From Devosia sediminis (GTDB lineage: Bacteria; Pseudomonadota; Alphaproteobacteria; Rhizobiales; Devosiaceae), in NCBI RefSeq assembly GCF_016411825.1, contig NZ_JAEKMH010000004.1:434001-498000 (forward strand): a stretch of 64,000 nt of DNA, in the 5' to 3' direction. A program made the translations under genes and the position numbers. Every line of letters starts with the position of its first letter. Position 1 is the first letter of the stretch. Below the pieces are notes generated by a model. That model made no database searches, had not been told where the DNA came from, and saw nothing but the letters and a program-made list of their open reading frames with translations. This document shows positions 1-55,478 of the stretch, one piece after another.

Positions 1-179
1 GTCACTTCCACGGCAAGATCGGGCGTATAGCAGAGTTCGAGGAAGTCCCTGGCCTGGGTCCGGGTCTGGCGATACTCGGGCAGATAGCGTCCGGCCTGAC
101 GCATGATCCAGATCGGGGGGCGCTCTTGCCGCTGTCCAAGGACAGTGGCGAGCAATTTCCTGTCGGTCACCGGAGCCAT
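1..179 (-). CDS. hemE: Uroporphyrinogen decarboxylase, N-terminal part (runs off the left edge)
   Basis: Reading the minus strand from the ATG at 179 gives about 59 residues before the window ends. They contain [18 protein letters not shown], the signature near the HemE N-terminus that includes the substrate-binding arginines of the uroporphyrinogen pocket. HemE decarboxylates uroporphyrinogen III to coproporphyrinogen III in heme synthesis, in the cytoplasm. The gene points away from maf. In Caulobacter, Sinorhizobium and Brucella the chromosomal origin lies beside hemE, so this fragment is important for interpreting the next 440 bases. Identification is firm from the motif; the rest of the gene is outside the window. 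Confidence 0.93.
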
Positions 180-367
180 GCGTTCATCCCTTCAAAACCC
201 GATAAAGAGTCTTTCTTAGCTTCGCTTCTTTATCTTTATGGCGGTGTTTAGCTGGAATTCAGCGTCACCCACAATCTCGGCCTTCGGTGACACTTGCGCG
301 CAGGCGGAAGTTAACGAGGTGTGAACAGCTCTTAAACCTTACCCAAAGCTTAACGCCGCCACACCTC

Positions 368-382
368 TTAACGAGAGGTTAA
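368..382. promoter_or_regulatory. Perfect CtrA-type box (TTAA-N7-TTAA)
   Basis: TTAA at 368-371, seven bases, TTAA at 379-382. This is the full consensus of the cell-cycle regulator CtrA, which represses initiation by binding such boxes at the Caulobacter origin. Further TTAA half-sites lie at 311, 332 and 350. Confidence 0.6.
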
Positions 383-388
383 TCCGCC

Positions 389-413
389 GACTCCCGAGTC
401 AACGATTCGATTC
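389..413. promoter_or_regulatory. Cluster of four CcrM methylation sites (GANTC)
   Basis: GACTC 389-393, GAGTC 396-400, GATTC 404-408 and GATTC 409-413 fall within 25 bases, directly right of the CtrA box. GANTC is the target of the alphaproteobacterial cell-cycle DNA methyltransferase CcrM. Such density is far above chance spacing of several hundred bases. Confidence 0.6.
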
Positions 414-602
414 AGGCTGTGGACGGGGCTGCGTATATCCCTTCCGCGCTCCGGACCGCTTTCCCCAGAGCTTTCCACCGGGCCTCGGCAGCACCCGTCG
501 AAACCATCTGTTAACAAATTATGAGCGAGGTCGAACAAGTCCGCTCCCCTCGAAAACTTGCTCCCATTCGTCCACAGTTCGGCCTTGAGCTGGGGATGAC
601 TG

Positions 603-611
603 TGTGGAAAA
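603..611 (-). promoter_or_regulatory. DnaA-box-like sequence
   Basis: TTTTCCACA on the minus strand differs from the DnaA box TTATCCACA at one position. It lies 10 bases before the maf start, at the right end of the candidate origin. Confidence 0.45.
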
Positions 612-620
612 ACTCGTCCC

Positions 621-1223
621 ATGCTTATCCTCGCTTCCGCCAGTGCCACCCGCAAAGCCCTGCTGGACAAGGCCGGGTTGCGCTTCCTCAGCGCTGCGGC
701 GACCATCGACGAACGTGGTCTCGAAACCGTGGCGCTCGAGGCTGGTGGCGATGCGCGGGATGTCGCTTTGCTGCTGGCGCGGCGCAAGGCCGAGGGGATT
801 TCCGCGCTCCATCCCGGCGCCATCGTGATCGGCGCCGACCAGACCCTGGCGCTGGGGCCGGAGCTTTTGCACAAGCCATCCTCGCGCCAGGAGGCCGAGG
901 CCCAGCTCGACCGGTTGCGCGGCAAGACCCATCGCCTCCATGCCGCCGTGACACTGGTGCGGGACGGGATCATGCTGTGGTCGGATCTGCAGACAGCCGA
1001 GCTGACGATGCGCAGCTTTTCCACCGAGGAGCGCGACCAGGTACTCGATCTCGAAGGCGGTGCCATTCTTGCCTCGGTCGGCAGTTATCGGCTCGAAGGC
1101 CCGAGCATCAGGCTCTTTGACACCGTCAGCGGCGATTATTTCACCATTCTCGGGCTGCCGCTGCTTCCTCTGCTTGCGGCATTGCGCGATATCGCACCCG
1201 AACTCCTTGAACATCAGGACTGA
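621..1223 (+). CDS. maf: Maf-like nucleoside triphosphate pyrophosphatase
   Basis: A 200-residue protein of the Maf/HAM1 superfold, which hydrolyses non-canonical or modified NTPs in the cytoplasm. The N-terminal phosphate-binding motif SASATRK (residues 6-12) and the GADQT motif (71-75, with D73 as likely metal/base residue) are present, and the ASVGSYRLEG segment (151-160) corresponds to the conserved second half of the active site. Length fits the family. No strong ribosome site precedes the ATG at 621, but it begins exactly at the conserved first strand. It is first in a tight run maf-aroE-coaE-dnaQ (3-base gap, 3-base gap, 4-base overlap), a common order beside hemE in alphaproteobacteria. 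Confidence 0.93.
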   Translation: MLILASASATRKALLDKAGLRFLSAAATIDERGLETVALEAGGDARDVALLLARRKAEGISALHPGAIVIGADQTLALGPELLHKPSSRQEAEAQLDRLRGKTHRLHAAVTLVRDGIMLWSDLQTAELTMRSFSTEERDQVLDLEGGAILASVGSYRLEGPSIRLFDTVSGDYFTILGLPLLPLLAALRDIAPELLEHQD

Positions 1224-4027: not shown

Positions 4028-4492
4028 CTAGTCGCGCTTGTCACGCCAGTCCTCATCGCGGAGCTCGATTGATCGGATCTCGTCATCCGGGTATGCGGTG
4101 GGTTGCTCGTAGCGGCGATAGGTCGTCGTGGTCTCGACTACCCGGACCCGTCCGGCGAGGGACGAGAACAGCCAGCCGCGAACCGGGGGCGCGAGCAGGG
4201 TCAGCGCCACGAGGTCGCTGAGGAAACCCGGAACGATCAACAGGATTCCCGCCAGCCCGACCAGCATGCCGTCGAACATGGTGCGGCCGGGAATGGTGCC
4301 GGCGCTGACATTGTTCCTGAGGCGGGCAATTGCCTGCAGGCCCTGCTGGCGCAGGATAAGCCCGCCGGCAATGCCGGCAAGGATCACGAGGCCCAGCGTC
4401 GGCAGGAGGCCAATCGTCCGTCCGACGACGATGAACAGCGCGATCTCGATCAGCGGCAGCAGCAGAAAACAAATACCGATCAGGCGGCCCAA
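4028..4492 (-). CDS. fxsA: FxsA-family inner-membrane protein
   Basis: From the TTG at 4492 the protein is 154 residues and starts GRLIGICFLLLPLIEIALF, which matches the usual FxsA start (a first membrane helix at the very N-terminus). An upstream TTG at 4549 in the same frame would add 19 charged residues and is less likely. Two further hydrophobic segments and a hydrophilic C-terminal tail follow. FxsA was named for suppressing phage exclusion by F; its cellular role is not settled. The gene is divergent from the Tim44-like gene and downstream of nothing obvious on its strand. Confidence 0.85.
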   Translation of the reverse strand: MGRLIGICFLLLPLIEIALFIVVGRTIGLLPTLGLVILAGIAGGLILRQQGLQAIARLRNNVSAGTIPGRTMFDGMLVGLAGILLIVPGFLSDLVALTLLAPPVRGWLFSSLAGRVRVVETTTTYRRYEQPTAYPDDEIRSIELRDEDWRDKRD

Positions 4493-4572
4493 GGTCTTAT
4501 CTCTGTCTCTTCGCGCGGTGGGGCGCGGCAAAAACGCAACTCGCCCCAACGTGAACTGGTTTCGGGCTAAAG

Positions 4573-4593
4573 CTTTCCCTATATATAGGAAAG
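4573..4593. promoter_or_regulatory. Palindrome CTTTCC-N9-GGAAAG in the fxsA / Tim44-like divergent promoter region
   Basis: CTTTCC (4573-4578) and its exact complement GGAAAG (4588-4593) flank the spacer CTATATATA. The AT core resembles a -10 element, so this could be an operator over a promoter of either divergent gene. Function is inference. Confidence 0.4.
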
Positions 4594-4659
4594 TCGCGGC
4601 GCAGAACGAGCGCCCCCATCAGTTTTTTGTCGACGCTTCCCGCGCAAGGTGCCCATTTC

Positions 4660-5382
4660 ATGGACGGTTTCCTCGATCTGCCGACACTCATCGCCATTGC
4701 CGTTGCTGTTTTCGTGCTGTTCCGGCTGCGGTCGGTGCTCGGCACCCGTACAGGCAATGAACGCCCGCCTGTGGATCGCACGCGCTCGTCGCGCCCGGAC
4801 AAGCCGACGGATGCCAAGGACGAAACGGTGGTGCCATTGCGGCCGCGTCCCGCCCAGCCGGACCTTGATGATGAACGCCGCGCCCGCAAGACCGAGGCCG
4901 AGATTGAACAGGCTGCCGCCGGCAATGCCGAGCTCGCGGCCGGCCTGCGCGCCGTGGTCGAGGCTGATTCCACCTTCTCGCCCAAGGGTTTCCTTGAAGG
5001 CGCCAAGCAGGCCTATGAGATGATCGTGACGGCCTATGCGGCCGGCGATCGCCAGACCCTGCGCGATCTCCTCGACAAGCCGATCTTCGAAAGCTTCCAG
5101 CGCGCCATCGCCGATCGTGAAGCCGCCGGCCACACGGTCGACTTTACCTTTGTCGGCCTGCCCAAGATCGCCATCGTCGATGCCGAATACGACCGCAAGG
5201 ACGTCACCGTCACGGTCGATTTCCACGCCGAAGTGGTTTCGGCCACGCGCGACAAGGACGGCAATCTCGTCGAGGGCAATGCCGACCAGGTCCAGACCAT
5301 CGCCGATGAATGGACCTTTGCGCGCAATCCCAAGTCGCGCGATCCGAACTGGAAGGTCGTGGCAACCAGCCAGCTCGATTGA
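4660..5382 (+). CDS. Tim44-like domain membrane protein
   Basis: 240 residues. A single N-terminal membrane helix (about 5-22, LPTLIAIAVAVFVLF) is followed by a charged low-complexity linker rich in Arg, Lys and Glu (to about 95) and a C-terminal Tim44-like domain (about 100-240, including KGFLEGAKQAYEMIV). Bacterial Tim44-like proteins are inner-membrane proteins related to the mitochondrial import motor subunit; their job in bacteria is poorly defined. The ATG at 4660 is preferred over a TTG at 4627 because it starts just before the helix. It lies 22 bases before an Smr-domain gene, a common alphaproteobacterial pair, but the mltA gene often found between them is missing here. Confidence 0.85.
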   Translation: MDGFLDLPTLIAIAVAVFVLFRLRSVLGTRTGNERPPVDRTRSSRPDKPTDAKDETVVPLRPRPAQPDLDDERRARKTEAEIEQAAAGNAELAAGLRAVVEADSTFSPKGFLEGAKQAYEMIVTAYAAGDRQTLRDLLDKPIFESFQRAIADREAAGHTVDFTFVGLPKIAIVDAEYDRKDVTVTVDFHAEVVSATRDKDGNLVEGNADQVQTIADEWTFARNPKSRDPNWKVVATSQLD

Positions 5383-36426: not shown

Positions 36427-36441
36427 TTAAGAGGCGGTTAA
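36427..36441. promoter_or_regulatory. Perfect CtrA-type box (TTAA-N7-TTAA) before rph
   Basis: TTAA 36427-36430, seven bases, TTAA 36438-36441, starting 38 bases before the rph start codon and so positioned over the rph promoter. Confidence 0.5.
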
Positions 36442-43696: not shown

Positions 43697-43711
43697 TTAA
43701 GCAAAGCTTAA
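43697..43711. promoter_or_regulatory. Perfect CtrA-type box (TTAA-N7-TTAA)
   Basis: TTAA 43697-43700, GCAAAGC, TTAA 43708-43711. The 13-mer CAAAGCTTAACGC here also occurs in the candidate origin at 344-356. It is 54 bases before the start of a small secreted peptide gene. Confidence 0.55.
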
Positions 43712-54790: not shown

Positions 54791-55450
54791 ATGCCGGAAC
54801 ATGGGCTGCTGGTGCAATGGAATGACGAGCGCGGCTTCGGCTTTGTCGAAGGCCGCGATGGCCAAAGGCATTTCGTTCATATTTCGGCCATCGCCCGCAT
54901 TGCCACCCGGCCGCGCATCGGCGACAGCGTCTCCTTTGTCCCGGCGCGCGGCGAAGACGGACGACTCCAGGCCCGAGCAGTAGAGATTCTGGGTGCCAAT
55001 CCAGCGCCCGGGCTCGCAATCCGCCGCCGCGGTGCCGTCGCGACGCCGGCCACGTCCCTGAACTGGCGCTATCCGCTGTCCCTGATCCTGATCGTCTTCG
55101 TCGTTGCGGGGGTCGCTCTCGACCGATTGCCCATTGCCGTAGCGCTGGCCTATCTCGGCATGGGGATCATTTCCTTCCTCGCCTGCCACGCCGACAAGCG
55201 CTACGCCGAGAACGGCCACTGGCGCATCAGCGAGGTGACGCTTCTGGGCCTCGACCTCGCTTTCGGCATTGTGGGTGGCCTCCTTGGTCAGGCCACCTTC
55301 CGCCACAAGACCCGCAAGCCAGGTTATGTCACCGCGACCGTGCTGATCTTGGCTGTGCATCTGCTCTGGCTGGTTGGCTTTGCGACCGGGCTGGTCGATG
55401 CCCGGCAGCTCGTCGCAGACATGGCTCCGATCCTGGGCATCAGTGGATAA
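54791..55450 (+). CDS. Cold-shock-domain / DUF1294 fusion membrane protein
   Basis: 219 residues in two parts. The N-terminal cold-shock domain (about 1-66) has HGLLVQWNDERGFGFVEG and RHFVHISAI, the RNP-1 and RNP-2 type nucleic-acid-binding motifs. The C-terminal DUF1294 part (about 90-219) has about four helices (LILIVFVVAGVALDRLPIAV, FGIVGGLLGQATFRHKTRKP, ATVLILAVHLLWLVGFATGL). The fusion tethers an RNA-binding module to the membrane; function unknown but the architecture is recurrent. ATG at 54791 follows CGGAGGATGAC. DnaA-box-like sequences and a parS-like site overlap and follow the stop. Confidence 0.88.
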   Translation: MPEHGLLVQWNDERGFGFVEGRDGQRHFVHISAIARIATRPRIGDSVSFVPARGEDGRLQARAVEILGANPAPGLAIRRRGAVATPATSLNWRYPLSLILIVFVVAGVALDRLPIAVALAYLGMGIISFLACHADKRYAENGHWRISEVTLLGLDLAFGIVGGLLGQATFRHKTRKPGYVTATVLILAVHLLWLVGFATGLVDARQLVADMAPILGISG

Positions 55451-55461
55451 GCTGTGGACAA
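55442..55461 (-). promoter_or_regulatory. Two adjacent DnaA-box-like sequences
   Basis: On the minus strand TTATCCACT (55442-55450) and TTGTCCACA (55453-55461) each differ from TTATCCACA by one base, are in the same orientation and lie two bases apart, immediately before a parS-like site. Confidence 0.5.
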
Positions 55462-55462
55462 G

Positions 55463-55478
55463 TGTTTCACGTGAATCG
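55463..55478. other. parS-like ParB-binding site, intergenic
   Basis: TGTTTCACGTGAATCG, perfect core, 14 of 16 consensus positions. It directly follows two DnaA-box-like sequences between the cold-shock/DUF1294 gene and aceA. Confidence 0.62.

What the first reader, a model, noticed from the sequence alone, without database searches (positions are those of the whole stretch)
180..620. hemE-maf gap carries the hallmarks of the chromosomal origin
A 441-base gene-free region has a perfect CtrA box, three more TTAA half-sites in 60 bases, five GANTC sites, an AT-rich stretch and a DnaA-box-like sequence. The hemE-side location of oriC is established for Caulobacter, Sinorhizobium and Brucella. 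Here RP001 (DUF299), usually between origin and maf, is missing.
Basis: partly seen in the sequence, partly recalled or inferred. Interest (0 to 1): 0.75.

Follow-up and report, generated by a model that had tools for sequence, protein, structure and literature searches.

The report
Devosia chromosome origin beside hemE
The 441-base gap between two housekeeping genes of a Devosia bacterium is very probably where it starts copying its chromosome; it is a known kind of origin, but it has lost its usual neighbour gene and sits oddly far from the point where the segregation signals turn round.

Summary
Window 180-620 is the divergent hemE-maf gap of a Devosia chromosome. The gap is 432-442 bp in 36 of 36 Devosia loci, each with a perfect CtrA box at nearly the same offset. 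Ten parS-like sites lie within 56 kb, the best four 4-7 kb away. Strand-corrected T-A skew, pooled over five genomes, changes sign at +10 kb (95% -30 to +40). It is very probably oriC of the known hemE-linked kind.

RP001 (DUF299) is absent from this genome and from every sampled family member; so is canonical pyruvate phosphate dikinase, its substrate by recall, so the loss looks metabolic.

Two oddities. The CtrA box is constant here, whereas the S. meliloti origin is reported not bound by CtrA. The KOPS-type octamer GGGCAGGG does not turn at the gap in any of five genomes: it turns at about +55 to +147 kb in four; the fifth contig ends first.

The parts
1..179 (-). 5' end of hemE (uroporphyrinogen decarboxylase), transcribed away from the gap
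   Evidence: ORF L001:645-1679:-, 344 aa; matches in 73 of 75 genomes of the genus at E <= 1e-60. Gene name by recognition of the sequence.
180..620 (.). proposed oriC, the whole hemE-maf gap (441 bp)
191..240 (.). AT-rich stretch, candidate unwinding region, with a conserved CTTTATCTTTATGGCGGTGTTTAG-like block at about 228-250
   Evidence: 66% AT, 13 of 63950 windows at least as AT-rich; conserved columns
265..273 (+). DnaA-like site TCACCCACA (2 mismatches); 16 of 29 aligned species have a <=2-mismatch site here
311..325 (+). second CtrA site, TTAACGAGGTGTGAA (1 mismatch); perfect in many relatives
339..347 (+). DnaA-like site TTACCCAAA (2 mismatches), in a variable stretch and not conserved; may be chance
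368..382 (+). perfect CtrA box TTAACGAGAGGTTAA
   Evidence: a perfect box at offset 178-188 from hemE in 36 of 36 loci
389..413 (.). four GANTC (CcrM-type) sites at 389, 396, 404 and 409; a fifth at 207
568..576 (+). DnaA-like site TCGTCCACA (2 mismatches); 7 of 29 species have one here
591..599 (-). DnaA-like site TCATCCCCA (2 mismatches); a <=2-mismatch site here in 29 of 29 species
603..611 (-). DnaA box TTTTCCACA (1 mismatch); a <=2-mismatch site in 29 of 29 species, once as perfect TTATCCACA
621..1223 (+). maf, directly right of the gap; in the other-family loci RP001/DUF299 lies between

Best explanation
The gap is the chromosomal replication origin (oriC) of this Devosia, orthologous to the hemE-linked origins of Caulobacter and other Alphaproteobacteria. 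Inferred mechanism: DnaA binds the array of weak boxes, above all the two minus-strand boxes next to maf that all aligned species keep, and opens the AT-rich stretch next to hemE. Phosphorylated CtrA on the central 368-382 box (and on 311-325) blocks initiation. The GANTC cluster next to it ties firing to CcrM methylation state. Shown here: anatomy, conservation, genomic setting, and presence of dnaA, ctrA-type and CcrM-type genes. Inferred: binding, opening, repression and firing. RP001 was lost between oriC and maf in this family without visible change of the origin.
For: Gap length 432-442 bp and a perfect CtrA box at offset 178-188 in 36 of 36 Devosia loci. Two DnaA-box columns occupied in 29 of 29 non-redundant species. 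Site enrichment over shuffles. The only DnaA-box cluster (>=3 within 400 bp, <=1 mismatch) in 2.13 Mb of five genomes lies in this gap, though in one genome only (G053). No DnaA box within 1 mismatch in the 3.5 kb held around own dnaA, which lies on another contig. All 10 parS-like sites of the genome are on this contig, at -43 to +55 kb, the best four at -4.3 to -6.6 kb; four relatives show the same core cluster. Pooled T-A skew change-point at +10 kb, bootstrap 95% -30 to +40. Devosia gap profile hits other families' hemE-RP001 gaps (best E 1.3e-4). CtrA-family gene 425 bits against cut-off 350; RAMA-domain (CcrM-type) gene 64.8 bits against 35.2.
Against: GC skew has no minimum here in G032 (sampled minimum about +0.75 Mb) and no usable change-point. 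GGGCAGGG stays in left-arm orientation across the gap (0 forward, 41 reverse from 0 to +40 kb in five genomes; the wider GGGNAGGG 28 and 77) and turns only at +55 kb or more. The T-A signal is a pooled one: in G028 it does not change sign, and in G032 it is near zero from 0 to +60 kb and from -400 to -100 kb; orthologous genes of five genomes are not independent, so the bootstrap interval is too narrow. DnaA boxes are weak: none perfect, one within 1 mismatch. GANTC clusters as dense occur elsewhere. Length constancy alone is not unique: 4 of 47 other gaps of >=120 bp vary by <=10 bp. No replication data.
Confidence: 0.9

Rival explanations
1. The true origin lies to the right, at the turning point of KOPS polarity (about +55 to +95 kb); the hemE-maf gap is only a CtrA/DnaA-controlled promoter region or a retired origin.
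For: With [CG]GGGCAGGG, polarity turns at +55-74 kb (G053), +80-91 (G013), +89-94 or +122 (G032), +124-147 (G028, where comM is split by about 75 kb of extra DNA) and not before +63 kb in the own contig, which ends at +80. In family f40 (G218) the 9-mer GGGGCAGGG turns within -45 to +17 kb of the gap, so the motif can mark an origin. Raw GC skew in the window changes from mostly negative to mostly positive near +44 kb.
Against: T-A skew change-points at +60 to +90 kb are worse than the best by 10.6-13.6 log-likelihood units, at +50 kb by 6.6 (pooled, genes not independent). No DnaA-box cluster there in any of five genomes. parS-like sites lie around hemE, best ones at -4 to -7 kb; only G028 has weak ones at +123 and +137 kb. 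Conservation of the gap. Single-genome turning points are rough: GGGGCAGGG alone gives +210 kb in G053.
Confidence: 0.06
2. The origin lies next to dnaA, about 210 kb away, where several complete Devosia contigs seem to begin.
For: In G032 dnaA sits at the contig start, about 209 kb right of hemE; hemE lies about 200 kb from a contig end in several single-contig genomes.
Against: Contig start at dnaA is a rotation convention (recalled). No DnaA box within 1 mismatch around own dnaA, no cluster around G032 dnaA, no parS-like site there. T-A change-points at +150 to +190 kb are 17-21 units worse than the best; +210 kb itself was outside the grid.
Confidence: 0.02
3. Purely a long divergent promoter region for hemE and maf with CtrA and GANTC control; no origin function.
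For: Divergent genes; CtrA boxes also occur in promoters (recalled); 4 of 47 other gaps are as constant in length.
Against: DnaA-site array, parS setting and skew change-point; of the five other gaps of >=400 bp in the own region none is constant in length; hemE-linked origins are described in other Alphaproteobacteria (PMC1914354 passages).
Confidence: 0.02

Closest known systems
Caulobacter crescentus Cori (hemE / COG1806 origin)
   Same: hemE on one side, AT-rich stretch, DnaA boxes, CtrA TTAA-N7-TTAA sites; similar size (404 bp in a Table 1 passage of PMC1914354)
   Different: COG1806 (RP001) is missing and maf abuts the origin; one perfect and one near-perfect CtrA site rather than five (PMC1914354 passages); four GANTC beside the CtrA box (not compared with Cori here)
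Rickettsia / Wolbachia hemE-linked origins
   Same: hemE boundary with DnaA and CtrA sites; Wolbachia also lacks COG1806 as the other boundary (PMC1914354 passages)
   Different: Wolbachia has COG1253 there; Devosia has maf
hemE-RP001 gaps of other families of the order (L058-L087), with S. meliloti as a studied member of the order
   Same: Same place; weak sequence similarity of the gap; at least two DnaA-like sites at <=2 mismatches in each of 28 measurable gaps
   Different: Perfect CtrA box in 12 of 28, at most one mismatch in 21 of 28, against perfect in 36 of 36 in Devosia; the S. meliloti origin is reported to lack CtrA motifs and CtrA binding (PMC4433202 passages)

Membership tests
hemE-linked alphaproteobacterial oriC | hemE as one boundary gene, transcribed away | tested here: met
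   divergent hemE in 36 of 36
hemE-linked alphaproteobacterial oriC | DnaA boxes clustered in the region | tested here: met
   five sites <=2 mismatches, 0 of 1000 shuffles; two columns in 29 of 29 species. All are weak in this genome; >=3 at <=1 mismatch only in G053 of five.
hemE-linked alphaproteobacterial oriC | CtrA sites TTAA-N7-TTAA (usual, not universal) | tested here: met
hemE-linked alphaproteobacterial oriC | AT-rich stretch | tested here: met
hemE-linked alphaproteobacterial oriC | COG1806/RP001 as the other boundary (usual, not defining: Wolbachia lacks it) | tested here: not met
   no PF03618 in the genome; no member of this family among 246 positives of 297
hemE-linked alphaproteobacterial oriC | shift of GC skew (listed in PMC1914354 as one of seven elements, not all needed) | tested here: not met
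   T-A skew does shift in the pooled data
hemE-linked alphaproteobacterial oriC | parS-like sites close by | tested here: met
   the par genes themselves were not searched for
hemE-linked alphaproteobacterial oriC | IHF site | not tested
   consensus judged too weak to score usefully
hemE-linked alphaproteobacterial oriC | autonomous replication / start of replication in vivo | not testable with these tools
   needs an experiment

The most novel reading that the evidence does not exclude
In Devosia the replication origin and the turning point of the FtsK-orienting (KOPS-type) motifs are uncoupled. oriC stays at hemE, but the whole parS-bearing origin domain, and at least 55 kb to its right, carries the octamer GGGCAGGG almost only in one orientation (0 forward, 41 reverse in the first 40 kb right of the gap), so the segregation polarity boundary lies at or beyond the right edge of the origin domain. 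Near-origin polarity would then be kept by something other than replication direction.
Probability: 0.4. Interest if true: 0.6.

Novelty: new member of a known kind. Interest (0 to 1): 0.42.

Why it matters
It places the origin in a genus for which two literature searches showed me no described origin (14 papers listed; 10 of 462 listed, many caught by the word heme; listings only, so weak evidence of absence) and in which GC skew fails. It gives a genus of the order whose origin keeps a constant CtrA box, unlike S. meliloti, so direct CtrA control of initiation can be tested within the order. The association between loss of RP001 and loss of canonical PPDK offers an account of the missing gene that needs no change in replication. 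The displaced KOPS turning point is a testable case of origin and segregation polarity disagreeing.

Tried and rejected
GC skew as origin marker: the sampled minimum in the complete relative G032 falls near +0.75 Mb and fourfold-site G-C shows no change-point; rejected as uninformative in this genus. Oligomer skew trained on distal G032 arms and applied near hemE gave its lowest value at the far right end, with the steep decline ending near -40 kb; not used. A second origin at the KOPS turning point: looked for DnaA clusters in five genomes, none found there. Origin at dnaA: rejected. Length constancy as sole proof: rejected, 4 of 47 other gaps are as constant (that call lists 48 gaps, one of them the hemE-maf gap itself, misread as 339 bp because my crude ORF caller took a spurious ORF beside it). 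Reading the Brassinga 2002 paper: not held.

Rows dropped: the Planomonospora locus L027 was left out of the gap comparison. Only the best 30 of 73 hemE matches came as loci, so the more distant Devosia were not compared. The 36 loci include near-identical ones and one genome twice; 29 were kept for the alignment. 2 of 30 other-family loci had no measurable gap. Genes at +46 to +121 kb of G028 were left out of the change-point fit and later ones shifted by 75 kb.

Full report
What it is. The window lies at G000:C11:434001-498000 of a 4.09-Mb draft genome in 16 contigs. Named relatives are Devosia (D. ureilytica, D. equisanguinis, D. elaeis and others). The family name Devosiaceae is recalled; the tool calls it f1. 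hemE reads left from 179, maf reads right from 621, and the gap 180-620 is 441 bp. Gene names are by recognition of the translated sequences.

Is it more than chance? In the gap of this genome: one perfect CtrA box (4 of 1000 dinucleotide shuffles have one); six TTAA (2 of 1000 reach six); five GANTC (45 of 1000 reach five); five DnaA-like sites at <=2 mismatches (0 of 1000) and one at <=1 mismatch (40 of 1000). Over 29 non-redundant species the means are 1.48 perfect CtrA boxes, 5.83 GANTC and 5.59 DnaA-like sites, against shuffle means of 0.00, 1.80 and 0.92. The 50 bp at 191-240 are 66% AT, a level reached by 13 of 63950 windows, overlapping ones included. Against: one other 441-bp place in the own 160 kb also has five GANTC, and the window as a whole is not enriched for <=1-mismatch DnaA boxes.

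Conservation. 36 Devosia loci were compared: five (the sixth hit, Planomonospora, dropped), the 30 loci returned of 73 genomes with a HemE match, and a second copy of G032. In 36 of 36 the gap is 432-442 bp, the genes are divergent, and a perfect CtrA box lies at offset 178-188 from hemE. HemE identity to the own protein runs from 75 to 87% in the relatives, and gap identity from 57 to 73% in the 29-row alignment, so the constancy is not recency. Two minus-strand DnaA-like sites next to maf (591-599, 603-611) occur in 29 of 29; sites at 418 and 459 occur in 19 and 20 of 29 but not in this genome at <=2 mismatches; the own site at 339 is not conserved. As a control, 47 other gaps of >=120 bp were measured in own and three or four relatives with crude ORF calls: 4 vary by <=10 bp, the longest of these 298 bp in the own genome, and the five of >=400 bp all vary by hundreds of bases. 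So length constancy is unusual but not unique.

Setting. All ten parS-like sites (<=2 mismatches) of the genome lie on this contig within -43 to +55 kb of the gap, the four best at -4.3 to -6.6 kb. Four relatives show the same core cluster; G028 also has weak sites at +123 and +137 kb. dnaA is on another contig and in G032 about 209 kb right of hemE. In 2.13 Mb around hemE in five genomes, the only place with three DnaA boxes (<=1 mismatch) within 400 bp is this gap, in G053; the gaps of the other four do not reach that threshold.

Compositional evidence, for and against. Raw GC skew does not support the site: in the window it is mostly negative up to 44 kb and then mostly weakly positive, and in sampled G032 the cumulative minimum falls near +0.75 Mb. 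At fourfold-degenerate sites, corrected for gene strand, G-C shows no usable change-point while pooled T-A does: best at +10 kb, bootstrap 95% -30 to +40 kb, the position 0 being 1.5 log-likelihood units below the best, +50 kb 6.6 below and +60 to +90 kb 10.6 to 13.6 below (1425 genes, five genomes, G028 corrected for an insertion). This rests on pooling: by genome, G028 shows no sign change and G032 is near zero from 0 to +60 kb, and orthologous genes are not independent. KOPS-type motifs disagree: GGGCAGGG has 0 forward and 41 reverse copies from 0 to +40 kb, and GGGNAGGG 28 and 77. With [CG]GGGCAGGG the best single turning point is +55-74 kb in G053, +80-91 in G013, +89-94 or +122 in G032, +124-147 in G028, and not before +63 in the own contig, which ends at +80; with GGGGCAGGG alone G053 gives +210 kb, so single-genome estimates are rough. 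In the window itself GGGCAGGG occurs 13 times, all reverse. Outside Devosia, read by eye from the listed positions, G218 turns between -45 and +17 kb, and G199 either at +5 to +21 or at +54 to +167 kb; the list for G219 stopped before its hemE region and could not be used. KOPS as GGGNAGGG pointing from ori to dif is seen in passages of PMC13342612. PMC5993296 passages say such motifs normally gain strand bias towards the terminus, which makes strong polarity beside the origin odd.

Relation to other families. A profile of the Devosia gap searched against 30 RP001 loci of other families gives 16 hits at E <= 10. Two (family f40, E 1.3e-4 and 5.2e-4, scores 15.8 and 13.8 with biases 8.4 and 11.7) pass the inclusion threshold. 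By their coordinates all 16 fall in the hemE-RP001 gap, some on the opposite strand (gap limits). This is weak similarity in the right place. In 28 measurable gaps, 12 have a perfect CtrA box and 21 one with at most one mismatch. For S. [quoted passage not shown] A gene of the CtrA family model (425 bits, cut-off 350) and a RAMA-domain gene, the CcrM type by recall, are present here.

The missing RP001. PF03618 has no match in this genome. In the order it is found in 246 of 297 genomes; none of the positives is in this family, and 13 family members are among the listed negatives (31 negatives are not listed). RP001 is DUF299, the PPDK regulatory protein by recall. In this family 0 of 61 genomes have pyruvate phosphate dikinase over the TIGR01828 cut-off; in 59 of 61 the best match runs from profile position 273-340 to 862-865, so the N-terminal part is missing or diverged, and in the own genome the open frame is 769 residues. 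In 101 genomes of the order, 87 pass. Tabulated by hand: both present 81, only RP001 absent 6, only PPDK absent 6, both absent 8; Fisher p 3e-5, or 0.009 without the four members of this family, relatedness not corrected. So the loss at the origin's edge is best read as metabolic.

How it works (inferred): DnaA fills the weak boxes near maf and opens the AT-rich stretch near hemE; CtrA on the central box keeps it shut until CtrA is removed; GANTC methylation reports whether the origin has been copied. None of these steps was observed here. Verdict: a hemE-linked alphaproteobacterial oriC, a new member of a known kind, with one unexplained feature (the displaced KOPS turning point) that deserves a marker-frequency experiment.

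Noticed in passing
window 55442-55478 (between comM/cold-shock-like genes and aceA, names by recognition): Two tandem DnaA-like boxes directly abut a parS-like site (AGTGGATAAGCTGTGGACAAG-TGTTTCACGTGAATCG). A parS-like site with at least one DnaA-like box beside it lies at the corresponding place in G032, G013 and G028; in G053 the DnaA part is degenerate. The other nine parS-like sites of the own contig have no DnaA box within 1 mismatch in the 100 bp on either side.
   Followed up: partly
window 1-64000 and 354-514 kb of own contig: GGGCAGGG occurs 13 times in the window, all on the minus strand; its polarity does not turn at the hemE-maf gap in any of five Devosia genomes but at +55 kb or more, and not within the own contig.
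   Followed up: partly
G000:C9:436015-437649: 0 of 61 genomes of the family have pyruvate phosphate dikinase over the family cut-off; in 59 the best match starts at profile position 273-340. Lack of canonical PPDK goes with lack of its regulator RP001 in the order.
   Followed up: partly
G028, +46 to +121 kb from the gap: The comM gene is split into pieces at +45, +81 and +121 kb, as if large insertions had entered it.
   Followed up: no
own contig about +79 kb, and window about 4388-4660: Two further intergenic gaps of near-constant length in own and four relatives (273 bp in all five; 268-272 bp) by crude ORF calls; not examined for RNA genes or sites.
   Followed up: no
window 36427-36441 and 43697-43711: The two other perfect CtrA boxes of the window; boxes at similar distances (+31 to +45 kb) occur in the four other Devosia genomes, probably promoters.
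   Followed up: no
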